A stretch of DNA of 64,000 nt from Demequina zhanjiangensis. GTDB lineage: Bacteria > Actinomycetota > Actinomycetes > Actinomycetales > Demequinaceae. Under the pieces are notes generated by a model that worked only from the letters and a program-made list of their open reading frames with translations, searched no databases and was not told where the DNA came from. Made by a program: the position numbers and the translations under genes. The stretch is from positions 1-64,000 of the forward strand of contig NZ_JAUHPV010000001.1 of assembly GCF_030418315.1 (NCBI RefSeq), given 5' to 3'. Position 1 is the stretch's first letter, and each line of letters begins with the position of its first letter. This document shows positions 50,048-59,848 of the stretch, one piece after another.

Positions 50048-50533
50048 TCACCTCGGCGGCAGGAGCGCCCGGAAGTAGGCGGCCCTGTAGCGGTCCTCCT
50101 CGGAGACGCCGAAGGACTCGGTGACGATCTCCAGCAACGCGTCGAACGCCTCGTCGGTCCTGCCTTGCATGTGGAGCTCGACGGCATCGAAGACTGCGCG
50201 CGCGGGAGGCCCTGCGAAGCGGCTGCGGGCCTCCTCGAGCAGGCTCTGCGCGGCTTCCGACTCGCCTAGCTCGTGGAGCACGGCGCCGTAGCGGAGCAGG
50301 CAGCGGCGCAGCGCCTCGCCGTGGAGGCCTGCCGAGAGCGCCTCGTCGTAGAAGTGCCGGGCGCGTTCTCCGTCGCGGAGCATCCCGTGGGTGTTGCCGA
50401 GCTCGTACAGGCTGCGGGCGTGGCGGGGATGCTCCTCGAGGAGGGTCTCGAGCGCTGAGATCGTGGCCTGGACCGCGTAAGGGTCACGGGTGGCGACGAT
50501 CGCGTCGAGCCTGTCGTCCACTGACTGATGCAC
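50048..50533 (-). CDS. Tetratricopeptide repeat protein
   Basis: A 161-residue helical protein of the TPR_5 type: HPRHARSLYELGNTHGMLRDGERARHFYDEALSAGL followed by a second repeat (LLRYGAVLHELGESEAAQSLLEEA) and a third (DAVELHMQGRTDEAFDALLEIV). GTG at 50533 is chosen because TACTGT lies seven bases upstream; a longer frame would start at 50647. Binding partner unknown. Confidence 0.8.
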   Translation of the reverse strand: MHQSVDDRLDAIVATRDPYAVQATISALETLLEEHPRHARSLYELGNTHGMLRDGERARHFYDEALSAGLHGEALRRCLLRYGAVLHELGESEAAQSLLEEARSRFAGPPARAVFDAVELHMQGRTDEAFDALLEIVTESFGVSEEDRYRAAYFRALLPPR

Positions 50534-50540
50534 AGGGGTG

Positions 50541-50546
50541 ACAGTA
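50541..50546 (-). promoter_or_regulatory. -10 element, leaderless promoter of the TPR gene
   Basis: TACTGT on the minus strand, seven bases before the GTG at 50533. Confidence 0.45.
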
Positions 50547-50643
50547 CCGAGCGTGGACGCGCCCGCGCGAACTCGCCCCTCGTCGTGCCGCCGTGGCTGA
50601 CCAGGGAAGGCGTGGTGCCGTCCTGGGTCGACGGGGTCGGCGC

Positions 50644-51369
50644 TCACAGGCCGATCCGATGCACGAAGCTGCTCAGCATGTCACCGACGCCGGCCATGAT
50701 CCCGGAGTCCGCCAGATTGAGCGTCGACAGGACGGGCGTGCCTGGGGCGACGAGTCCGTGGACCGTGCCCCAGTCGAGCTCGGTCGACGAGATGGTGGCG
50801 GTCACGAGCGAGTCGGGTCCGGCCTGCTCGACGTCGAACGTCTCGAGCATGCCGGTGACGACGGTCGCGTCAGGGAGGGTGATCTCGACGTACTCGACGT
50901 CGGGGATGCGACCGAAGTCGAGCCGGTTCACCAGGAAGTCGGAGGTGACGAAGAGGGTGTCGGTCTCGGAGATGGTCGCGACGGGCGCGCCCTGCCAGGC
51001 GTAGCTTCCGGATGCGACGCCCACCTCGGTGACGATGCCGTCGACGCTGGCGAGGACGGTGAGCGTTCCCTCCGGGGTGACGTCGCCGTCGGACGCGTCG
51101 ATCAGCCCGTCGGCGATGTCGCGCTCGAGCGAGGTGGAGGAGATGGTCATGAGGGGATCGCCGACCTCGACCTCGTCTCCGAGCGACACGAACACTGCGG
51201 TGACGAGTCCGGCGTAGTCGGTGCCGATCGGGTGCTCGACGGCCTGGATCATGCCGGCGATGCTGTCGATCCTGTGCTCACGTTGGTTGAAGACCACGGT
51301 GGCGGCGGCGCCGATGAGAACCACGGCGAGCAGGCCGAGTCCGAAGCGGAGCTTGTTCATCCACGACAT
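50644..51369 (-). CDS. HlyD-like membrane fusion protein, polysaccharide operon A
   Basis: A 241-residue membrane-anchored protein. One N-terminal helix (about 5-26, ending VVFNQREH), then a lipoyl/barrel-sandwich half (GLVTAVFVSLGDEVEVGDPLMTI), a second lipoyl half (LASVDGIVTEVGVASGSYAWQGAPVATI) and a beta-barrel domain. It lacks a long coiled coil, as in Gram-positive relatives. The end, SFVHRIGL, matches the paralogue at 56987 (EFAHRIGL), also 241 residues. It follows the GT2 synthase gene by 65 bp. A role assisting polymer secretion or synthase assembly is inferred, by analogy with rhizobial BgsB beside the mixed-linkage glucan synthase BgsA. Confidence 0.82.
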   Translation of the reverse strand: MSWMNKLRFGLGLLAVVLIGAAATVVFNQREHRIDSIAGMIQAVEHPIGTDYAGLVTAVFVSLGDEVEVGDPLMTISSTSLERDIADGLIDASDGDVTPEGTLTVLASVDGIVTEVGVASGSYAWQGAPVATISETDTLFVTSDFLVNRLDFGRIPDVEYVEITLPDATVVTGMLETFDVEQAGPDSLVTATISSTELDWGTVHGLVAPGTPVLSTLNLADSGIMAGVGDMLSSFVHRIGL

Positions 51370-51434
51370 CTGGAGAGTTCCTTAGGGGAGGGGACGTGCA
51401 GAGGGCTGGTGGGGGCGGGGCGCCGACGGGAGGG

Positions 51435-54400
51435 TCATCCCTGGCCGGGTGCGGGGGCTGCGCCGCCGGGGTGGGGAGGGTAGCCGCCCGTGTGAGGCGC
51501 TCCGGGTGCCGACGGGTGGGGGACGGCAGGGTTCGGGCCGTAGCCGGGGTAGTTGTGGGTCTCGGGGTAGCCGCTGGGTGCCGGCGGGTAGCCCTGGTTC
51601 GACCCGGGGTAGGCGGGTCCGGCCGGATAGCCCGTGCCGACGGGGTAGCCCGGTCCGCCGGGATCGCCGACGCCTGCGGGGTAGCCAGCTCCCGGCGCGG
51701 AGGGCTGGGAAGGTGCGCCGGACCAGCCGCCGCCGAAGCCGACGGCCTCGGGGTAGGCGTATGCGTCCGTGCTCGGGTAGCCCTGCGACGCGGGGGTCTG
51801 CTGCGGGGGCAGAGGCTGGCCCGTGTACGGGTCGTATCCCTGCGGCATGGGGGGTGAGTAGGGCGCATACCGCGGGTCCTGCGGTGCTCCGTAGTGACCG
51901 GCCTGCGGGTAGGGGTAGGCGCCGGGCTGCGCCGGATAGCCGGGTGCGGGCGCCTGCCCGTACGGCGCGCCTCCGTAGGGCGAAGGCTGGTGGGGCGCCT
52001 GCCCGTACGCGTGCGCGGGTGACTGCTGGTGCGTCGCCTGCCCTTGCCCGGGGGTGCCTCCGGCGGGTTGACCGTAGGGGGTGGCCGCGTGCGGCGCCGA
52101 GCCGTAGTTGCCGCCAGGGCCGTAGTTGCCGGGGTTGCCGGCCATGTCGCCGGGAACGCTGCCGGGCCCGCCCGGGTACGACGCTGCGGGCTGGTACGGC
52201 TGCTGCGCGGGCGGTGTCTGTCCCGGCCACGCGGTGTACGGGGACGCCTGCGAGGGCGCCCCGGGATACGAGCCCACGATGGGCGTGTGGGGTGCAGGCG
52301 CGCGCGAGGGCGTCGCGGCGTGGGGTGCAGGCCCGGCCTCGGCCTGGTGCCACTGCCAGCCGGGGCGATCGGCATCAGTGTTTGTTGCGCCGCCGGTCGC
52401 TGTGTCGTCACCGGCTGTGTCGTCATCGGCCGCGCCATTCTCAGCGCCGGCGGCTTCGGTGGCGGTGGCGGTGGCGTCGCCTGCGTCCTCGCGGGAGGGC
52501 GTCTCGGGATCGACGGCGGTGTCACGCTCGCGCTCTGCCGAGTGGTCGCGCACGGTGCCGGCATCGATTTCGGACCCGGCTCCAACGTCGGACCCGACAC
52601 CGGCGTCGGGCTCAGCACCAGCGTCGGACCCGACACCAGCGCCGGACCCGGCGCCAGTGTCAGGCGCGGGGACCGGCATGAGCGCGGGCCGCTGCCCGGC
52701 GACGACCGAGGCCTCACCCGCGAGCACCGACCGTGCCGTCATCGTCGCGGCGCGCACGGCGGCGGCGCTCGCGGCCTGGCTCGCGGTCACGGGGTCGAGG
52801 GCGGGCTGGACCGGGGGCTGGAAGTACTGGACCTGGCCTGACGCCAAGGCGGTCTCCGGCGCGGGCGTCCGCGCGGCGCGTGCCTTCGCCGCGATGCGCT
52901 CGCGGGCGCCCACGGGCATCGCGCTCGGCGCGATCTCGCCCTCGAGCTCGAGCAGCGCGGCGATCTCGTTGTCCAGGTCGTCGGCCTGCGGGGTGACGGG
53001 AAGCTCGGTGCTCTTGGCGGCCTTCTTGCTGGCGCGCGGCTTGAGGTTCATGCCGGCGGAGACGACGAAGACGCCCAGGATCGCGGTGTTGAGGATGTTC
53101 CACACGGTGGCGAGCGTGAGGAAGCCGTTGCCGAAGTCCCGCCACAGCGCGACGACGGACGCGATCAGCAGGAACGCGAAGAACAGCATCTGCGGGATCA
53201 TGTAGTTGAACGCGGAGCTCTGCTTGAGGGTGCCGGTGGCCTGCCAGCCGACGTCCTTGCCGCGGAGCACGTTGAACAGCGCCTTCGTGTAGACGGGGAA
53301 GGACACCGTGGCGAGCGTCAGGGTCTGCCACTTGTAGGTGCCGAGCGCGAACCAGGCGAGCAGGATCTGCATCACATAGAAGCCGGCGTAGAACAGCGCC
53401 CATTCGCCGACCGTGATCGACAGGGAGACGGGTCGCAGGTCGAAGAAGATCTCGAGCGGCGGCACCAGCAGCAGGGGCAGAGGCGCGATGCCGGTGAGGT
53501 AGAACGACGCGGTCGTCAGGTACTGGATGCGCTGCTCGAGCGAGAGCTTGGAGCGGCGGCTGAACAGCGGGTGGGTGAAGAGGATCTCGAAGCCGCCCGT
53601 CGCCCAGCGGAGCTGCTGCTTGGAGAACGCCTCCACGTTGTCGGGGGCGTCGCCGACGGCGAGGACCTCGGGGATGAAGATCGACTTCCAGCCGCGCTCG
53701 TGCATCATGAGCGAGGTCCACACGTCCTCGGACTTGGAGTCGGTGTAGATCCCGCCCACGTCCAGCACCGCCTCACGGCGGAACATCACGTTGGTGCCCA
53801 CGCAGAACGCGGCGTTGAAGCGGTTCTTGCCGGGCTGCACGAACCGGTAGAAGACGGTCTGCATGTAGGCGGCGCCCTTGGAGATGACGCTCTCGTTCTC
53901 GTTGCCGTAGCTCTGCGGCGTCTGCACGAACGCGACCTTGTGGTCGATGAAGAACGGCAGGGTCTGCTCGATGAACTCGGGCTTGGGCACGAAGTCGGCG
54001 TCGAAGATCGCGAACACCTCGCCCTTGGCGAGCGTGAGCGCGTGGTTCACGTTGCCGGCCTTGGCGCCGTGCGAGGTGAGGCGCCGCACGTATCGCACCC
54101 CGAGCTGGGCCGCGAGCTCCTTGACGTCGTCGGAGCGGCCGTCGTCCAGGATCCACGTGCGGTGCTGGCCCCGCATGTCGCGGGCGGCGACGGCGGTGCG
54201 CTCGATCACGTCGAGCGGCTCTCCGTAGACGGTGATGAGGATGTCTACGGTGATGGGCCGGCCGCCGAGCATGACGGGCCAGTTCCTGGGGTCTCCGTGG
54301 TGGTGGGCGTAGAGCACGCTGCGCGCGTGGTGCACGGCGTACGTGCGGGGGTTCTGGCCGCCCGCGAGGATCGTCCAGCTGGTCATGAGCGCATGCATGA

Positions 54401-54599
54401 CGAGGACGAGCTCGGCGCCGAGCACCATGAGGTAGGGCACCAGGTCGCCGCGGTTCGCGGGGTTCAGCAGGAAGCCGGTGTACGCGAGCACTCCGATGGT
54501 CGCGATCAGCACGAGCGTGATCATCACGGGCGACTGCTCGGAGCCCATGAAGTGGTGCTGGTCGGGACGCGCGGGCGCGTCAGGGGTCGGTCGGCTCAT
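51435..54599 (-). CDS. Processive family 2 glycosyltransferase with long disordered tail, operon A
   Basis: Membrane polysaccharide synthase of 1054 residues, cellulose/curdlan-synthase-like. N-terminal helices (about 26-45 and 53-78), then a cytoplasmic GT-A domain with TWILDDG (Asp152, Asp153), IFDADF (Asp200, Asp202), TDSKSEDVWTS (about 287-296) and the processivity motif QQLRW (328-332). Further helices run from about 360 to 515. No PilZ domain is seen. Residues 520-1054 are a low-complexity tail, first Asp/Ala/Gly-rich, then Pro/Gly/Tyr/Gln-rich. ATG at 54599 has ggag seven bases upstream; the frame open to 54761 has no better start. Product inferred as a beta-glucan. Confidence 0.88.
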   Translation of the reverse strand: MSRPTPDAPARPDQHHFMGSEQSPVMITLVLIATIGVLAYTGFLLNPANRGDLVPYLMVLGAELVLVMHALMTSWTILAGGQNPRTYAVHHARSVLYAHHHGDPRNWPVMLGGRPITVDILITVYGEPLDVIERTAVAARDMRGQHRTWILDDGRSDDVKELAAQLGVRYVRRLTSHGAKAGNVNHALTLAKGEVFAIFDADFVPKPEFIEQTLPFFIDHKVAFVQTPQSYGNENESVISKGAAYMQTVFYRFVQPGKNRFNAAFCVGTNVMFRREAVLDVGGIYTDSKSEDVWTSLMMHERGWKSIFIPEVLAVGDAPDNVEAFSKQQLRWATGGFEILFTHPLFSRRSKLSLEQRIQYLTTASFYLTGIAPLPLLLVPPLEIFFDLRPVSLSITVGEWALFYAGFYVMQILLAWFALGTYKWQTLTLATVSFPVYTKALFNVLRGKDVGWQATGTLKQSSAFNYMIPQMLFFAFLLIASVVALWRDFGNGFLTLATVWNILNTAILGVFVVSAGMNLKPRASKKAAKSTELPVTPQADDLDNEIAALLELEGEIAPSAMPVGARERIAAKARAARTPAPETALASGQVQYFQPPVQPALDPVTASQAASAAAVRAATMTARSVLAGEASVVAGQRPALMPVPAPDTGAGSGAGVGSDAGAEPDAGVGSDVGAGSEIDAGTVRDHSAERERDTAVDPETPSREDAGDATATATEAAGAENGAADDDTAGDDTATGGATNTDADRPGWQWHQAEAGPAPHAATPSRAPAPHTPIVGSYPGAPSQASPYTAWPGQTPPAQQPYQPAASYPGGPGSVPGDMAGNPGNYGPGGNYGSAPHAATPYGQPAGGTPGQGQATHQQSPAHAYGQAPHQPSPYGGAPYGQAPAPGYPAQPGAYPYPQAGHYGAPQDPRYAPYSPPMPQGYDPYTGQPLPPQQTPASQGYPSTDAYAYPEAVGFGGGWSGAPSQPSAPGAGYPAGVGDPGGPGYPVGTGYPAGPAYPGSNQGYPPAPSGYPETHNYPGYGPNPAVPHPSAPGAPHTGGYPPHPGGAAPAPGQG
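52569..52658 (-). repeat. Five 18-bp tandem units coding a Gly/Ala/Asp repeat
   Basis: Five consecutive units near TCGGACCCGACACCAGCG (plus strand) from 52569 in steps of 18, within the synthase A tail. They encode hexapeptide units such as VGSDAG and could expand or contract. Confidence 0.7.
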
Positions 54600-54625
54600 G
54601 TCACACTCCGGGGGGTCGACAGCGT

Positions 54626-54678
54626 GGGGGACTCCGCTCCTTGGGGGAACGGTGGCGCCATTGCCTCGGTGCGAGCAC
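54626..54678 (-). promoter_or_regulatory. Conserved leader island of synthase operon A
   Basis: Contains GGCGCCATTGCCT (54654-54666), then after six bases GAGCA, and GGGGGACT at 54626-54633. The same blocks in the same order lie upstream of the paralogous synthase at 59802-59848, in otherwise unrelated sequence. Read on the coding strand it is TGCTC-N6-AGGCAATGGCGCC, with an ATG at 54661 that opens a 21-codon frame ending in the synthase start codon (ATGA). Confidence 0.5.
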
Positions 54679-54746
54679 CTCCGGGGCGGGCTGTTCATGG
54701 CCGGTTTGCCATCGCGACCGAGAACAGCCAGGTAGATCGCCGGGGG

Positions 54747-54762
54747 TGTGACCTGGGCCACA
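54747..54762. promoter_or_regulatory. CRP/GlxR-like site
   Basis: TGTGACCTGGGCCACA: one mismatch to TGTGA-N6-TCACA, about 150 bp upstream of the synthase A start. The binding protein is inferred. Confidence 0.45.
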
Positions 54763-54785
54763 CCCTTCCGAATAGGTGACGCAGT

Positions 54786-54811
54786 GTCACAAGTTTGTGA
54801 CGAACCTCACA
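54786..54811. promoter_or_regulatory. CRP/GlxR-like site overlapping a second inverted repeat
   Basis: TGTGA-CGAACC-TCACA at 54796-54811 is a perfect match to the CRP-family consensus TGTGA-N6-TCACA. It overlaps a 16-bp inverted repeat, GTCACAA-gt-TTGTGAC, at 54786-54801. Both lie about 190-210 bp upstream of the synthase A start in the gap after the GH81 gene. Confidence 0.55.
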
Positions 54812-54840
54812 TCGGCATTCGCCTTGAAAACCTGAACCCC

Positions 54841-54904
54841 CGACCGATAGGTCGTCTAGGAGGCTCCTGGCCTCGGCCGGGCATCGCCCGTGCTGCGCCG
54901 CAGC
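54841..54904 (-). terminator. Cluster of small hairpins after the GH81 gene
   Basis: GCTGC-gcc-GCAGC (54892-54904), CGGGC-atc-GCCCG (54878-54890), AGGAG-g-CTCCT (54858-54868) and CGACC-gata-GGTCG (54841-54854) follow the GH81 stop in order. Together they may end the operon B transcript before the operon A promoter. Confidence 0.4.
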
Positions 54905-54920
54905 GTCTGCGTGTCCGCCG

Positions 54921-56990
54921 TCAGCCGGCGGCTGCGATGAACGCCAGCATGTAGGCGCGCGTCATCCCGTCGTCGATCGCCGAGTCGGGCAGCGCGAGCG
55001 CGATGGACCAGGCTGCCGACTGCTGCTTGGGGCCTGCGAGCGCGGAGTACATCGTGATCAGGTCGGTGAACTGGTCCGCCGTGCCGGTGGGCATGGCCTC
55101 GGTGATGGAGGAGAGCACGCGGCTCGTCTCGGTCTCATCGGTCGGCGCGAGGATCTCCGCCTGGGTGGGGGCGAGCGGGATCAGCTGGATGCCGAGCATC
55201 GCTGCGGGGTCGGGTGAGAACCAGGTGGCCCAGTCGCGCTTGCCGCCCCATTGGATGCCGACGACCTGGTGCAGGTACTCCGGGGCGAACGACGTGTCGG
55301 GCCGGACGTAGAGCGCGATCGCGGAGTGTGCCTCGGCGGACAGCATCCAGGTGGCGCGCTCGGCCGCTCCTGCGTCGCCGCGCAGCTCGGCCCATGCGGC
55401 GACGGCCGTCCATGCGAGCACCGCCTCGGAGCTCGACTCCTGGTTGTTGCCGTCGGCGAACGGGGAGATCCCGGAGGCCCACGAGTGTCCGGCCCACGGA
55501 TCGAACGGCCGCAGGGCGGGCACCTGGTCGGTGCCGGTGGATGCGATGTCGGCGACGAGCGCGTCCACGACGGGTGCGACGTCGTCCTCCTCGAGCAGCC
55601 CCGTCTCCACGGCGATGGCCGCGGCGTAGATCAGGTAGCCGTAGTGGAAGTGGTGGTCGTTGAACTCCTGCGAGTCGAACGACGGTTCGAGGCCCACGAC
55701 CCCGCCCCAGTTCTCGTCGTAGACGAAGCAACGGCTCGACCGCAGCTCGCAGCCGTCGGCCTGGGTCCATTGGGTGAGCGCGGCGGAGAGCCGCTGGCCG
55801 ATGCGAGCGGCCGAGTCCTCGTCGCCGAGCGCATCGGCGATCGCGTACGCCTGTGCGTCGCGGTAGAGGGCCTTGGAGCCGAAGTAGGTGTCCGACGGGT
55901 AGTCGGCGACGTCGGCGTCGGCGAGCGCTGCGGTGACCGCCTCCTGCTCCTCGGCGGAGAGGTTCGAGACGTCGAGAGTGAGCTCTGGGCGGATGGTGTC
56001 CACGTGCCAGGTGAGGTCGTTGCCGACGCACGCGACGGTCGGGCCGTCGATCGTGGCGAAGGTGCCCGCGTCGCACGTGCCTTCGGTGACGGTCCCGTCG
56101 ACTGCGGCGGAGGGGACGACGACGGTGGGGCCGCCGTCGAGCGTCTCGTATGTGAGCGTCGTGCTGGTGTTGTCCTCGCCGACCGCCCACTGCGGGGTCA
56201 CCGCGACGACCGGGGAGGACATGAGTGCGGCGTACTCGCTCGGGTCGGCGCCGGCCGGCACGGGGAAGGCCTGCAACCAGCCGCCGTCGCGAAGCGTCAC
56301 GTCGGCTCCGTCCACCTCGGCGTCGGCCGTGCTGACCGCGTAGGTGGTGCCGGCGAGGTCCACGATGCCGACGCCGTCCTCGCCCCACGTGGGCGCTGCC
56401 GAGAGCGACAGCGTCACGTCGGCAGTCGCGACGAAGCCGATCGCCGGCCAGCCCTGGGCGACGGTCGCGGTCGCGAGCCTCGCGTCGTCCTCTGCCCCCG
56501 GGTCGGAGAACGCGAGCGTGGTGTAGGCGGGCTCGTTGACGAGGGCCTTCGGGCGTGAGTCGGCGCCTTCCACCGTGACCGTGAGGAAGTCGGCGGTCTG
56601 CGCGGCGATCAGGGCATCCGACGCCGCGATGGTGGGCAGCGCGACCCCGAGCGAACCTGCGTCGACCTGCACGGCGACGGGCGTCGCGAAGGACTTGGCG
56701 GGAAGGTCGGCATAGACGAGGCCTGAGTACCACCGGTTGGTGGGAGCAAGCACGCCGTCGGCGACGCCCTCCATCGACGGGGGCTCAGCGATCGCCTCCA
56801 CGGGCAGGGTCTGGGCCAGGGTCGACGCGGCGGCGTCCACGACGCCCACCTCCCCGTCGGCGGTGGGAGCCATCGTCTCGGCCATGGGGCTCCCGTCTGG
56901 CTCGGCGTCGCCGGTGCACCCGGCGAGCACCACGAGGGCCGAGGCGAGCCCGGCCGCGGTCAGGAGACGAAGGGGCTGCGCACGCGTCAC
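54921..56990 (-). CDS. GH81 endo-beta-1,3-glucanase lipoprotein
   Basis: Predicted to cut beta-1,3-glucan at the cell surface. 689 residues. Lipobox VLAGC (Cys25) after a signal peptide. The N-terminal beta domain starts TNRWYSGLVYADLP (about 84). The (alpha/alpha)6 catalytic domain has YDENWGG (424-430), FNDHHFHYGYL (443-453, catalytic Asp445 region) and DPWAGHSWASG...DGNNQESSSEAVLAW (497-527, with the two catalytic-type glutamates Glu518 and Glu522). GTG at 56990 overlaps the HlyD-like stop (GTGA), so it is co-translated with the polysaccharide machinery. Full family length. Confidence 0.88.
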   Translation of the reverse strand: MTRAQPLRLLTAAGLASALVVLAGCTGDAEPDGSPMAETMAPTADGEVGVVDAAASTLAQTLPVEAIAEPPSMEGVADGVLAPTNRWYSGLVYADLPAKSFATPVAVQVDAGSLGVALPTIAASDALIAAQTADFLTVTVEGADSRPKALVNEPAYTTLAFSDPGAEDDARLATATVAQGWPAIGFVATADVTLSLSAAPTWGEDGVGIVDLAGTTYAVSTADAEVDGADVTLRDGGWLQAFPVPAGADPSEYAALMSSPVVAVTPQWAVGEDNTSTTLTYETLDGGPTVVVPSAAVDGTVTEGTCDAGTFATIDGPTVACVGNDLTWHVDTIRPELTLDVSNLSAEEQEAVTAALADADVADYPSDTYFGSKALYRDAQAYAIADALGDEDSAARIGQRLSAALTQWTQADGCELRSSRCFVYDENWGGVVGLEPSFDSQEFNDHHFHYGYLIYAAAIAVETGLLEEDDVAPVVDALVADIASTGTDQVPALRPFDPWAGHSWASGISPFADGNNQESSSEAVLAWTAVAAWAELRGDAGAAERATWMLSAEAHSAIALYVRPDTSFAPEYLHQVVGIQWGGKRDWATWFSPDPAAMLGIQLIPLAPTQAEILAPTDETETSRVLSSITEAMPTGTADQFTDLITMYSALAGPKQQSAAWSIALALPDSAIDDGMTRAYMLAFIAAAG

Positions 56991-57712
56991 AGACCGATCC
57001 TATGGGCGAACTCGGCGAGCATGTCGGACACCCCGGCGAGCGGCCCGTCGTCCCTCAGGTACAGGGTCGCCTCCACGGGTGTGCCAGGCTCGATGAGCCC
57101 GGAGCCGTCGCCCCAGACGAGGTCGTCGGACTCCACGCGGATCGTGACGAGCGCGTCGCCGTCGACCGTCTCCACATCCAGCCTGTCCACCACGCCGGTG
57201 AGCATGCTGCGGTCCGGCAGCACGAAGTCGACGGTCGCGCCGTCCTCGATGCGCCCGAAGTCGGCGGGGGAGAGTCGGAACTGGGCCTCGACGAACAAGG
57301 TGTCCCTCTCGTCGATCTCGGCGACCACGTCGCCCGCCTGCACGTACGACCCGACCTGCATGCCAAGGTCCGCCACGTTCCCGTCGACGGCGGCGTACAT
57401 CGTGTACCGACCACCGGCACCGACGCCCTGCTCGCCCACGTCGACGAGGCCTTCAGCAACCATGAGCTGGAGCTGCTCGGACTCGAGGGTCGCGAGCGGA
57501 TCGCCTGCGGACACCTCCTCGTCCTCCTCCACATACGAGGTGGTGACGAGGCCGCCGTGCTCGGCTCCGACGGCGATCGTCGCCGACTCGATCGCCGCGG
57601 ACTCGGAGTCGACCCGCAGCTCTCTCTGGTTGAACACGAGCGTGCCGGCGGCCACGATCGCGAGCACGAGGATCAGTCCGAACAGGAACTTCATGCGGCT
57701 TGCCCAGGTCAT
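56987..57712 (-). CDS. HlyD-like membrane fusion protein, polysaccharide operon B
   Basis: A 241-residue paralogue of the protein at 50644. N-terminal helix (about 8-27, VLAIVAAGTLVFNQREL), two lipoyl half-motifs (GLVTTSYVEEDEEVSAGDPLATL and AAVDGNVADLGMQVGSYVQAGDVVAEI), a beta-barrel and the same end, EFAHRIGL. ATG at 57712 overlaps the synthase stop (ATGA) and its own stop overlaps the GH81 start, giving strict 1:1:1 coupling. Confidence 0.83.
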   Translation of the reverse strand: MTWASRMKFLFGLILVLAIVAAGTLVFNQRELRVDSESAAIESATIAVGAEHGGLVTTSYVEEDEEVSAGDPLATLESEQLQLMVAEGLVDVGEQGVGAGGRYTMYAAVDGNVADLGMQVGSYVQAGDVVAEIDERDTLFVEAQFRLSPADFGRIEDGATVDFVLPDRSMLTGVVDRLDVETVDGDALVTIRVESDDLVWGDGSGLIEPGTPVEATLYLRDDGPLAGVSDMLAEFAHRIGL

Positions 57713-59730
57713 CGCGCGACCCCCGTCCTGGTCTCGGTGCTGGTGTCAGTGCGGAACACGTCGGAGCCTCGTCTTCCCTCGCGGGCCGAGCGGGCGGCGA
57801 CGAATGCCGCCGCCGTCGCGTTGGCCGAGGCGCGTGCGGCGAGCGAGGCGTGGTCGACGTCGTCGGCATCCTGGACACCCACTACCGGGTCCTCGTCGAC
57901 GGCGGTGAGGGTCTCGGTCCGGTTCGCCGCCCTCGCCGCGCCCGGGCGGTCCGGCAGGGGGGCGCTCGACTCGCCACGGTCCAGCGCGGTCATCGAGGGC
58001 TCCCACGGGGTCGCGTCGGTCGCGGTGGCGGCGACCTGCACGAGCTCGGGCTCGGGCGAGAGGTCAGGAGCGGTGGCGCGCGCCCGTCGCGTCGGGGCTG
58101 CATGGGCGGGGCCCGTGCTCCTTGCGGCGCGCCGCTCAGCTCGCCGCACCGCACGCAGAGCCTTGTCCTCACGGGCGGCGGCGAGCATGAAGGCGCCGAG
58201 CACGACAGTGTTGATGAGGTTCCAGCCGGTGGCGAGCGAGGGGATGCCGTGGATCCAGTCGCGCCAGATCGCGAGCACCGAGGTGAGACCCAGGAACACG
58301 AAGAACAGCATCTGCGGCACCATGAAGTTGAACGGCGAACGGGTCTGCACCGCGCCGGTGGCGGACCAGCCGACGTCCTTGCCGCGCAGCACGTTGAACA
58401 GGGCTTTCGTGTAGATGGGGAACGACACCGTCGCGAGGGTCAGCGTCTCCCAGCGGAAGGTGCCGAGCGTGAACCACATCAGGATGATCTGCATCACGTA
58501 GAAGCCGCCGTAGAACAGCAGCCACTGGCCCGCGGAGATGTCGAGCGACATGGGTCGCAGATCCAGGTACACCTCGAGGGGCGGCACGAGCAGCAGCAGT
58601 AGCGGGGCGATGCCGGTGAGGTAGAAGGTCGCGGTCACGAAGTACTGGAGCCGCTGGTCGATCGTGAGGCGGCTGCGCCGCGACCACAGCGGATGGGTGA
58701 AGAGGATCTCGAAGCCGCCCGTCGCCCAACGCAGCTGCTGCTTCGAGTACGCCTCGACCGACTCGGGAGCGTCGCCGACGGCGAGCACCTCAGGCAGGAA
58801 GACCGAGCGCCAGCCGTTCTCGTGCATCATCAGCGAGGTCCACACGTCCTCAGACTTCGAGTCGGTGTAGATGCCTCCCACATCGATCACAGCGGCGCGG
58901 CGGAAGACGACGTTGGTGCCCACGCAGAACGCGGCGTTGAAGCGGTTCCTGCCCGGCTGCACGAAGCGGTAGAACATCGTCTGGAGGTAGGTGGCGCCCT
59001 TGGCGATGGTGCTGGTCGTCTCGTTGCCGTAGCTCTGCGGGGTCTGCACGAAGGCGAGCTTGTCGTCCACGAAGAAGGGCAGCGTGCGCTCGAGCATCTC
59101 CTCGTCCGGCGCGAAGTCCGCGTCGAGGACGAGGAAGTACTCGCCCTTGGCGATCGACAGCGCGTGGTTGATGTTGCCTGCTTTGGCGCCGCCCGAGCTG
59201 AGCCGCCTCACGTACCGTGCGCCTCGCGCGGCCACGGCGTCTCGAAGCTCGTCGCTGTCGCCGTCGTCCAGCACCCAGGTGCGATGGCGGCCGCGCATCC
59301 GCAGCGCCGCGTCGAGCGTGCGCGTGATGGTCTCGACGGGCTCGCCGTACGCCGTGATGAACACCTCGACCGTGACGGAGCGACCGTGGAGCATCAGGGG
59401 CCAGTCGGTCGGGTCGTCGCCGGTCGTGTGGGCGTACAGGCGCTCGCGGGCGTGATGGACCGCGAACGTGCGCGGATCCTCCTTGGCCGCGAGGATCGTC
59501 CACATCGACACGATCGCGTGGAAGGCGAGGATCGACTCGGCGGCGATCACGAGCGAGTACGGCAGCAGGTCGCCGCGGTTCGCGGGGTTCAGCAGGAAGA
59601 TGCTGTACGCGAGGATTCCGAGGGTCGCGATCAGCACCAGCAGCGTCATCACGGGTGAGCGCTCGGCGGGCTCGGTGCGGCGAGTCGGGGTGTCCTTCGC
59701 GGTGGCGCTCGGAAGCTGGACGAGAGTCAT
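57709..59730 (-). CDS. Processive family 2 glycosyltransferase, operon B
   Basis: Polysaccharide synthase of 673 residues, closely related to the one at 51435 up to about residue 530. WVLDDG (Asp155, Asp156), VLDADF (Asp203, Asp205), TDSKSEDVWTS and QQLRW (331-335) are present, with the same flanking helices. The tail after about 530 is only 140 residues and not Pro/Gly/Tyr-rich. ATG at 59730 has ggag eight bases upstream. An in-frame ATG at 59832, inside the conserved leader island, would add 34 Arg/Pro-rich residues and cannot be excluded. First gene of a synthase-HlyD-GH81 operon. Confidence 0.88.
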   Translation of the reverse strand: MTLVQLPSATAKDTPTRRTEPAERSPVMTLLVLIATLGILAYSIFLLNPANRGDLLPYSLVIAAESILAFHAIVSMWTILAAKEDPRTFAVHHARERLYAHTTGDDPTDWPLMLHGRSVTVEVFITAYGEPVETITRTLDAALRMRGRHRTWVLDDGDSDELRDAVAARGARYVRRLSSGGAKAGNINHALSIAKGEYFLVLDADFAPDEEMLERTLPFFVDDKLAFVQTPQSYGNETTSTIAKGATYLQTMFYRFVQPGRNRFNAAFCVGTNVVFRRAAVIDVGGIYTDSKSEDVWTSLMMHENGWRSVFLPEVLAVGDAPESVEAYSKQQLRWATGGFEILFTHPLWSRRSRLTIDQRLQYFVTATFYLTGIAPLLLLLVPPLEVYLDLRPMSLDISAGQWLLFYGGFYVMQIILMWFTLGTFRWETLTLATVSFPIYTKALFNVLRGKDVGWSATGAVQTRSPFNFMVPQMLFFVFLGLTSVLAIWRDWIHGIPSLATGWNLINTVVLGAFMLAAAREDKALRAVRRAERRAARSTGPAHAAPTRRARATAPDLSPEPELVQVAATATDATPWEPSMTALDRGESSAPLPDRPGAARAANRTETLTAVDEDPVVGVQDADDVDHASLAARASANATAAAFVAARSAREGRRGSDVFRTDTSTETRTGVAR

Positions 59731-59801: not shown

Positions 59802-59848
59802 GGGGGACTGGTCGCGGATGCGACGGCGCCATTGCCTTGAGGGGAGCA
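59802..59848 (-). promoter_or_regulatory. Conserved leader island of synthase operon B
   Basis: GGGGGACT (59802-59809), GGCGCCATTGCCT (59825-59837), six bases, GAGCA (59844-59848): the counterpart of the blocks before synthase A. A GCGAG-tcccc-CTCGC hairpin lies just upstream in the transcript. Confidence 0.5.

What the first reader, a model, noticed from the sequence alone, without database searches (positions are those of the whole stretch)
50644..59730. Twin polysaccharide operons: two processive GT2 synthases, two matching HlyD-like proteins and a GH81 glucanase
Seen: two synthases (QxxRW, DDG, DAD motifs) over 500 residues alike, each followed by a 241-residue HlyD-like protein ending HRIGL. 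Operon B is strictly coupled (ATGA, then GTGA) to a GH81 lipoprotein. Known: GH81 cleaves beta-1,3-glucan; rhizobial mixed-linkage glucan synthesis uses a GT2 (BgsA) with a HlyD-type partner (BgsB); some Cellulomonas make curdlan-type glucan. Inference: a Gram-positive, PilZ-free beta-1,3- or mixed-linkage glucan system in which the glucanase trims or releases polymer, with two synthases of different specificity or timing. I know of no described actinobacterial system of this make-up.
Basis: partly seen in the sequence, partly recalled or inferred. Interest (0 to 1): 0.85.

Follow-up and report, generated by a model that had tools for sequence, protein, structure and literature searches.

The report
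Bacterial beta-1,3-glucan synthase operon with glucanase
A three-gene unit found in many actinobacteria appears to build a sugar polymer across the cell membrane and to carry its own membrane-tethered enzyme that cuts beta-1,3-glucan, which would make it an apparently undescribed cousin of the known bacterial cellulose and curdlan factories.

Summary
Two processive GT2 synthases (63% identical over 560 residues), each followed by a 241-aa HlyD-type protein, and one GH81 lipoprotein lie where stated; operon B is ATGA/GTGA-coupled. The genome is Demequina-like. The real unit is the triplet GT2-HlyD-GH81: contiguous in 76 of 79 related loci (two misses are contig ends, one is rearranged), in Demequina, Microbacteriaceae, Cellulomonas, Cellulosimicrobium and others, with unrelated flanks. 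In 47 family genomes synthase and GH81 occur in the same 27. GH81 keeps its catalytic motifs and looks membrane-tethered. Best explanation: a PilZ-free, monoderm beta-1,3-glucan synthase with a minimal HlyD adaptor and a cognate GH81 that trims or untangles nascent chains. Linkage is inferred, not shown. The tree sets the synthases apart from the BcsA and the CrdS/BgsA clades (family 100/100); a cyanobacterial GT2 is the nearest relative with moderate support (78/89). Closest analogue in organisation: cyanobacterial Xcs (GT2-HlyD-endoglucanase). Prior art: two CrdS-like GT2s per Cellulomonas genome were noted in 2013. Against: C. gelida has the triplet but reportedly makes no curdlan, and some channel residues are not CrdS-like. 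Pair A is a younger duplicate in a few Demequina. New variant of a known kind.

The parts
57709..59730 (-). GT2-B, processive GT2 synthase, 673 aa, first gene of the triplet
   Evidence: Pfam GT2 families; motifs DDG, DAD, SED, QQLRW; AF2 model pLDDT 75.6, no folded C-terminal domain, 548-628 below pLDDT 50; Foldseek best hits bacterial BcsA, then plant CesA and CslF6
56987..57712 (-). HlyD-B, small single-pass adaptor (N-terminal helix 3-30, beta-rich body, C-terminal helix 226-239), 241 aa
   Evidence: Pfam HlyD_3 1.4e-12; AF2 pLDDT 88.4, helices longer than 8 residues only at the two ends; Foldseek ZneB, MexA, EmrA, BesA, MacA; 4-nt overlap with GT2-B
54921..56990 (-). GH81 endo-beta-1,3-glucanase-like lipoprotein, 689 aa
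   Evidence: PF17652 177 bits; PDB GH81 enzymes 5v1w, 5t4a, 6fop, 4k35; motifs NDHHFHYG and NQESSSE; lipobox LAGC; 4-nt overlap with HlyD-B
51435..54596 (-). GT2-A, second synthase, 1053 aa, with 498-aa low-complexity tail (about 51435-52931)
   Evidence: Pfam GT2 families; 63% identical to GT2-B over 560 residues; tail composition and codon-position GC; A-type relatives in G008, G021, G029, G043
50644..51369 (-). HlyD-A, partner of GT2-A, 241 aa, ends HRIGL
   Evidence: Pfam HlyD_D23 2e-9; 45% identical to HlyD-B; a HlyD-A-type protein follows the A-type GT2 in G008, G021, G029, G043
59825..59837 (-). 13-mer AGGCAATGGCGCC in the leader of GT2-B; possible shared control site, unproven
   Evidence: only two exact copies in the own genome; 0.06 expected in the window with one mismatch allowed
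54654..54666 (-). the same 13-mer in the leader of GT2-A

Best explanation
The triplet encodes a beta-glucan synthesis and export machine at the membrane of a single-membrane (monoderm) cell. GT2-B polymerises UDP-glucose at the cytosolic face and threads the chain through its own channel, as cellulose synthase does. HlyD-B, a minimal adaptor with one membrane helix and no hairpin for a TolC partner, sits at the channel exit and stabilises the synthase or guides the chain. GH81, tethered to the same outer face, cuts beta-1,3-glucan stretches of the emerging polymer; as a GH81 enzyme can bind intertwined beta-1,3-glucan chains, its likely job is to trim or untangle chains and free stalled synthases, the role I assume for BcsZ (GH8) and CcsZ (GH5) in cellulose systems. 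The polymer is therefore most likely a beta-1,3-glucan (curdlan type) or has long beta-1,3 runs. Pair A is a younger duplicate with its own HlyD, presumably sharing the single GH81. Shown: genes, motifs, predicted folds, coupling, conservation, co-occurrence. Inferred: sugar donor, linkage, complex formation, role of GH81.
For: Contiguous triplet in 76 of 79 loci. GT2 (E<=1e-60) and GH81 (E<=0.001) present in the same 27 of 47 family genomes (kinship not corrected for). In 59 order-level genomes all 8 with the GT2 have a GH81 beside it. Outside Demequina the ORF clusters of the triplet cover 60-61 of 61 loci, the next neighbour cluster 18. GT2-HlyD start/stop overlap in 78 of 82 pairs; HlyD-GH81 overlap in 47 of 76 and within 30 nt in 19 more. 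Lipobox in 65 of 76 GH81 proteins; six of the other 11 are Cellulomonas with, by my reading, a hydrophobic N-terminal anchor. Catalytic acid motif 76 of 76, base motif 72 of 76, three of the four misses being truncated or broken ORFs. BcsA-equivalent positions 276 and 298 are Q in 83 of 83 rows and 309 is R or K, as in BgsA and CrdS-like proteins, against H, N/G, L/N in BcsA (residues from PMC6821405, sections 8 and 9). C. fimi ATCC 484 (contig 4,266,344, its genome length) has a member (P0155); C. flavigena makes curdlan abundantly and C. fimi and others a little, per PMC3544764 (passages). Cognate hydrolase as marker of the polymer: PMC7710045 (passages). GH81 on intertwined glucan: PMC8949617 (passages).
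Against: No biochemistry. The tree does not put the family with CrdS, so the product cannot be read from kinship. The residue argument is weak: the Leptolyngbya GT2, annotated as cellulose synthase, also has Q, Q, R; position 302 is Y in 83 of 83 rows, as in BcsA (CrdS-like and BgsA have F); 412, 465 and 480 match neither CrdS nor BcsA. The gating-loop FxVTxK is WxxTG here. C. gelida NBRC 3748 has the full triplet (L131), yet C. gelida is reported to make no curdlan EPS (Kenyon 2005 as cited in PMC3035266, passages). The curdlan producer C. flavigena was not named among the 120 best hits of either search (hits are 90% clusters with cut-off names, so it may be hidden). GH81 also occurs away from the synthase: alone in G068, second copies in G028, G034, G072 and G088 and more distant GH81-like ORFs downstream in L144 and L146, so a scavenging role is possible. 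Pfam recognised the GH81 N-terminal domain in only 10 of 18 members and not in the window protein.
Confidence: 0.6

Rival explanations
1. The polymer is mixed-linkage (1,3;1,4)-beta-glucan, and GH81 cuts only runs of 1,3-linkages.
For: Channel-entrance residues Q, Q, R match S. meliloti BgsA; HlyD partner as in BgsB; a Gram-positive mixed-linkage synthase exists in Romboutsia (PMC10374906: abstract, section 11 and passages).
Against: Alternating or short 1,3 runs would be poor GH81 substrates (recalled family knowledge); not in the BgsA clade.
Confidence: 0.18
2. The synthase makes cellulose, as several records annotate it ('cellulose synthase (UDP-forming)'), and GH81 is a passenger or acts on foreign glucan.
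For: Annotations; best structural matches are BcsA and CesA; Y302 as in BcsA; nearest outside relative is a cyanobacterial GT2 (78/89), a phylum where GT2-HlyD-endoglucanase (Xcs) is assigned to cellulose.
Against: CelA scores of 212-221 bits against a curated cut-off of 699; QTPQ instead of QTPH in 83 of 83 rows; the GH81 link is too constant for a passenger; no 1,4-glucanase in the conserved unit.
Confidence: 0.12
3. The GT2-HlyD pair makes a beta-1,3-glucan, but GH81 serves nutrition: it digests stored or environmental glucan. (This differs from the best explanation only in the role of GH81, so its odds overlap with it.)
For: Curdlan is proposed as a storage polymer in C. flavigena; GH81 occurs away from the synthase in G068, G028, G034, G072, G088.
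Against: The operon GH81 is translationally coupled to the adaptor and looks membrane-tethered; the synthase was not seen without it in the 47- and 59-genome sets.
Confidence: 0.15

Closest known systems
Cyanobacterial Xcs system (XcsA GT2+PilZ, XcsB HlyD-like, XcsC endoglucanase)
   Same: same three-part logic in one operon in Synechococcus elongatus and Nostoc punctiforme (PMC12430437, passages); the family's nearest outside relative in my tree is a Leptolyngbya GT2, with moderate support 78/89
   Different: XcsA has PilZ, the cell has an outer membrane and a proposed TolC partner, product assigned as cellulose; the passages do not call the hydrolase GH81. The Leptolyngbya GT2 was not shown to be XcsA and has no HlyD gene annotated beside it
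Agrobacterium curdlan system crdASC
   Same: GT2 with a HlyD-family first gene: L164 and L165 have HlyD-GT2-unknown, their GT2s bearing all six named CrdS residues (HlyD of L164 by Pfam); Q, Q, K at the entrance, as in GT2-A
   Different: other clade; third gene unknown, no GH81; HlyD protein of L164 484 aa; diderm. L164/L165 are my assignment by gene order, gene length and residues; the records do not name crd genes
Sinorhizobium BgsBA mixed-linkage glucan system
   Same: two-gene HlyD+GT2 operon without PilZ (L157, identified by residues published in PMC5567048)
   Different: the BgsA tail binds c-di-GMP; no hydrolase in the operon; other clade; BgsB 410 aa
Clostridial cellulose synthase ccsZABHI
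   Same: Gram-positive synthase with a cognate, membrane-anchored glycoside hydrolase (PMC7710045, passages)
   Different: GH5 hydrolase, cellulose, other accessory genes
Cellulomonas curdlan-type glucan and its two CrdS-like GT2 genes
   Same: each of three Cellulomonas genomes has two GT2s 35-39% identical to CrdS, and GH81 (PMC3544764, passages); C. fimi ATCC 484 holds a member of this family
   Different: the passages describe no operon, HlyD or GH81 link; genes not tested; I did not show that the named locus tags are this family

Membership tests
Processive GT2 polysaccharide synthase (CesA superfamily) | D, D, D, QxxRW motifs | tested here: met
   invariant in the 45-row alignment and at the BcsA-equivalent positions
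Processive GT2 polysaccharide synthase (CesA superfamily) | CesA/BcsA fold with membrane helices around the catalytic domain | tested here: met
   AF2 model (pLDDT 75.6) and Foldseek, TM about 0.5-0.6
Bacterial cellulose synthase BcsA | passes the curated CelA model cut-off | tested here: not met
   212 and 221 bits against 699
Bacterial cellulose synthase BcsA | C-terminal PilZ domain | tested here: not met
   no PilZ by Pfam or in the model
Curdlan synthase CrdS | clade membership | tested here: not met
   CrdS-like proteins group with BgsA, 99.3/100, away from this family; the CrdS references are my own assignment
Curdlan synthase CrdS | sub-family residues (BcsA 276Q, 298Q, 309K, 412H, 465W, 480H) | tested here: not met
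   276Q and 298Q in 83 of 83 rows; 309 R in 80 and K in 3; 412, 465, 480 differ
Curdlan synthase CrdS | makes beta-1,3-glucan | not testable with these tools
   needs polymer analysis
BgsA mixed-linkage synthase | clade membership | tested here: not met
BgsA mixed-linkage synthase | c-di-GMP-binding C-terminal tail | not tested
   GT2-B tail is largely disordered in the model; no direct comparison with the BgsA tail was made
GH81 endo-beta-1,3-glucanase | GH81 catalytic domain and catalytic motifs | tested here: met
   PF17652 in 18 of 18 scanned; acid motif 76 of 76, base motif 72 of 76; which residue is acid or base is recalled
GH81 endo-beta-1,3-glucanase | N-terminal GH81 domain PF03639 | tested here: inconclusive
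   10 of 18 members, not the window protein
GH81 endo-beta-1,3-glucanase | hydrolyses beta-1,3-glucan | not testable with these tools
   needs an enzyme assay
HlyD / membrane fusion protein | HlyD/adaptor domain and fold with one membrane helix | tested here: met
HlyD / membrane fusion protein | alpha-helical hairpin typical of TolC-contacting adaptors | tested here: not met
   no helix longer than 8 residues between residues 31 and 225 in the model

The most novel reading that the evidence does not exclude
A third, independently evolved lineage of bacterial beta-1,3-glucan synthases, apart from CrdS/BgsA and BcsA, spread over Micrococcales and perhaps some Propionibacteriales (three MAG loci), built as an obligate trio in which a membrane-tethered GH81 resolves multi-chain beta-1,3-glucan at the channel exit and a hairpin-less HlyD protein serves as a monoderm exit adaptor; in some Demequina a second synthase with altered channel-entrance residues (K309, T412) and a long disordered tail makes a variant polymer.
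Probability: 0.42. Interest if true: 0.75.

Novelty: new variant of a known kind. Interest (0 to 1): 0.6.

Why it matters
If right, it names the genes for a beta-1,3-glucan exopolymer in many actinobacteria, including Cellulomonas, where curdlan-type glucan is long known and where I found no proven synthase. It offers a compact three-protein system, with the hydrolase as a built-in marker of product linkage, to learn how GT2 synthases choose 1,3 against 1,4 bonds and how a HlyD adaptor works without an outer membrane. It would also correct the 'cellulose synthase' label that several of these genes carry.

Tried and rejected
Rejected: that L043 (S. meliloti GR4 pRmeGR4c) is BgsA. I first labelled it so; it has QTPH and falls in the BcsA clade. 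The true BgsA is L157, identified by published residues. Corrected: the support of the tie to Leptolyngbya. My re-rooted print showed 100/100 at that node because support labels shift on re-rooting; recounted as splits it is 78/89, the family alone is 100/100 and A-type plus GT2-B is 99.2/100. Rejected: a known riboswitch in the leaders. Rfam gave nothing at gathering level in the window and one weak hit inside the GH81 gene region on the other strand (nhaA-I, 26 bits, gathering 37). Led nowhere: wider similarity of the two synthase leaders (score 42, shuffles up to 52). Led nowhere: a single-protein scan of genome contigs. Not settled: whether C. flavigena carries the triplet. Not run: the empty site in the 20 family genomes without the unit. 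Literature: the operon was sought (open-access PMC papers only; most subscription papers are not held); no listing that I saw described it, and of the papers cited I saw abstracts, named sections or passages only. PMC12246864 (passages) reports that an EPS-cluster pipeline found no match in Microbacterium oxydans.

The chance values ignore kinship. The tree used 26 of the 79 loci (29 of 83 family rows) plus the two window proteins and 18 references. In one search only 57 leaders passed my anchor and length filter. The lipobox count was automatic: of 11 misses six are Cellulomonas; the other five had a misplaced start or a cysteine box outside my pattern. Gene labels sulfite/nitrite reductase, CysH and RarD for the flanks are my recall; no family search was made.


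Full report
What is there. The stretch 50644-59730 holds, all on the - strand, GT2-B (57709-59730), HlyD-B (56987-57712), GH81 (54921-56990), GT2-A (51435-54596) and HlyD-A (50644-51369). Pfam confirms the GT2, HlyD and GH81 domains and finds no PilZ. GT2-B/HlyD-B share ATGA and HlyD-B/GH81 share GTGA. The genome (3.13 Mb, 18 contigs) has one GH81 and, besides A and B, only short or weak matches to GT2-B. The nearest named proteins are from Demequina, so the window is from Demequina or a near relative.

The unit is a triplet. In 47 genomes of the family, 27 have the GT2 (E<=1e-60) and 27 have GH81 (E<=0.001), and they are the same 27; 20 have neither. The order GT2-HlyD-GH81 is contiguous in 24 of the 27; G015 is split over two contig ends, G021 has GH81 before an A pair, and G011 (50% complete) has pieces only. 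A RarD-like gene was found on the fetched stretch in 25 of 27 and a sulfite/nitrite-reductase-like or CysH-like gene in 17 of 27 (labels recalled), so the place is largely fixed. Seven of the 27 have two full-length GT2 ORFs: GT2-HlyD-GT2-HlyD-GH81 in G030 and G032, two full triplets in G016, and triplet plus A pair in G000, G008, G029 and G043. G028 and G034 have a second GH81 elsewhere.

Spread. They include Demequina, Frigoribacterium, Agromyces, Microbacterium, Curtobacterium, Cellulomonas, Cellulosimicrobium, Sanguibacter, Oerskovia, Isoptericola, Cryobacterium and, as MAGs, Propionicimonas and Friedmanniella. GT2, HlyD and GH81 follow each other in 76 of 79; L077 and L118 stop at contig ends and L075 is the rearranged D. 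salsinemoris locus. Outside Demequina no neighbour cluster covers more than 18 of 61 loci, whereas the clusters of the triplet's ORFs cover 60 or 61. In an even draw of 59 genomes of the order (four of them from the family set), 8 have the GT2 and 9 have GH81; all 8 are among the 9, each with a GH81 beside the GT2, while G068 has GH81 without GT2 and G072 and G088 have a second, unlinked GH81. So in these sets the synthase was not seen without GH81, but GH81 does occur without the synthase.

Coupling and tethering. GT2 and HlyD overlap by the start/stop codon in 78 of 82 pairs; HlyD and GH81 overlap in 47 of 76 and lie within 30 nt in 19 more. A lipobox was found in 65 of 76 GH81 proteins; the six Cellulomonas proteins have, by my reading, a hydrophobic N-terminal anchor instead, and five misses are start or pattern problems. 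The GH81 motif NDH(H/Y)FH is present in 76 of 76 and NQESxSE in 72 of 76; three misses are truncated or broken ORFs and one is a DQESASE variant. Pfam recognises the GH81 catalytic domain in 18 of 18 scanned members and the N-terminal domain in 10.

Structure. The HlyD-B model (pLDDT 88.4) has one long N-terminal helix, a beta-rich body, a C-terminal helix and no hairpin; it matches ZneB, MexA, EmrA, MacA and BesA at TM about 0.5-0.6. The GT2-B model (pLDDT 75.6) matches BcsA, plant CesA and barley CslF6 and shows no folded C-terminal domain. Pfam HlyD families are shared with BgsB and the CrdA-like protein, but direct profile similarity is weak to BgsB and absent to the CrdA-like protein.

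Product. Phylogeny does not decide it. In a tree of 49 rows and 413 columns the actinobacterial family is one clade (100/100), BcsA proteins another (99.1/100), BgsA plus CrdS-like proteins a third (99.3/100), and the last two are joined (93.7/99); the Leptolyngbya GT2 joins the family with 78/89. BgsA was identified by its published residues R599, R605-D608, H615, Y633 and G635 (PMC5567048, passages; checked). The CrdS-like proteins were identified by gene order (HlyD-GT2-unknown), the length of the first gene in L164 (1455 against 1458 bp for crdA) and the six residues named for CrdS in PMC6821405; the first gene of L165 is 1392 bp. At the channel entrance the family has Q, Q and R (K in the A type) at BcsA positions 276, 298 and 309, like BgsA and CrdS and unlike BcsA. 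But the Leptolyngbya GT2 has the same three, position 302 is Y as in BcsA, and 412, 465 and 480 match neither. So the residues lean away from BcsA without proving a 1,3 product. The main reason to favour beta-1,3-glucan is the constant GH81, by the reasoning used for CcsZ and clostridial cellulose (PMC7710045, passages). [quoted passage not shown] Cellulomonas gives independent but incomplete support: C. flavigena makes curdlan, three Cellulomonas genomes have two CrdS-like GT2s and GH81, and C. fimi ATCC 484 has a member of this family. Against it, C. gelida has the triplet but is said to make no curdlan, and C. flavigena itself could not be checked.

The second pair. A-type synthases form one clade (100/100) that joins GT2-B of the same genome (99.2/100), so A arose by duplication within Demequina. 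All three A-type rows of the 83-row alignment and GT2-A itself have K309 and T412; the other 80 rows have R309 and V or L (75 and 5) at 412. This, the long A/P/G/Q/Y-rich tail and its own HlyD argue for a changed property, of unknown kind. The 13-mer AGGCAATGGCGCC occurs twice in the own genome, once before each synthase; exact copies are absent from the other loci fetched apart from those of the own genome.

Verdict. It works like the cyanobacterial Xcs and the Bcs/Ccs systems (synthase, exit partner, cognate hydrolase) but belongs to none of BcsA, CrdS or BgsA by the tests made. I rate it a new variant of a known kind, with beta-1,3-glucan as the most likely product (0.60).

Noticed in passing
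window 54654-54666 and 59825-59837 (-): The 13-mer AGGCAATGGCGCC occurs exactly twice in the 3.13-Mb genome, once in the leader of each synthase; near forms (AGGCAACGGCGCC, CGGCAACGGCGCC) lie in the leaders of G029 B and G008 A. Function unknown.
   Followed up: partly
window 51435-52931 (-): 498-aa A/P/G/Q/Y-rich tail of GT2-A without a Pfam hit; similar long tails in A-type synthases of G008, G021, G029 and G043, the last with 30% undetermined residues.
   Followed up: partly
window 50048-50647 (-): TPR protein overlapping the end of HlyD-A by 4 nt; a similar ORF follows the A pair in G021 and G029.
   Followed up: no
L051 (G011): In this 50%-complete genome the synthase, GH81 and the neighbouring reductase gene all lie in several ORFs, so poor assembly quality is as likely as gene decay.
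   Followed up: no
L164 and L165: Agrobacterium/Rhizobium plasmid loci with HlyD-GT2-unknown order that look like crdASC; this would make CrdA a HlyD-family protein, whereas PMC10819609 (passages) says its function is not known.
   Followed up: partly
L152, L153: Rhizobium rhizoryzae and Caballeronia plasmid GT2s fall in the BcsA clade of the tree.
   Followed up: no
L144 and L146: A second, more distant GH81-like ORF lies just downstream of the triplet in two Cellulomonas genomes (Leaf334, Leaf395).
   Followed up: no
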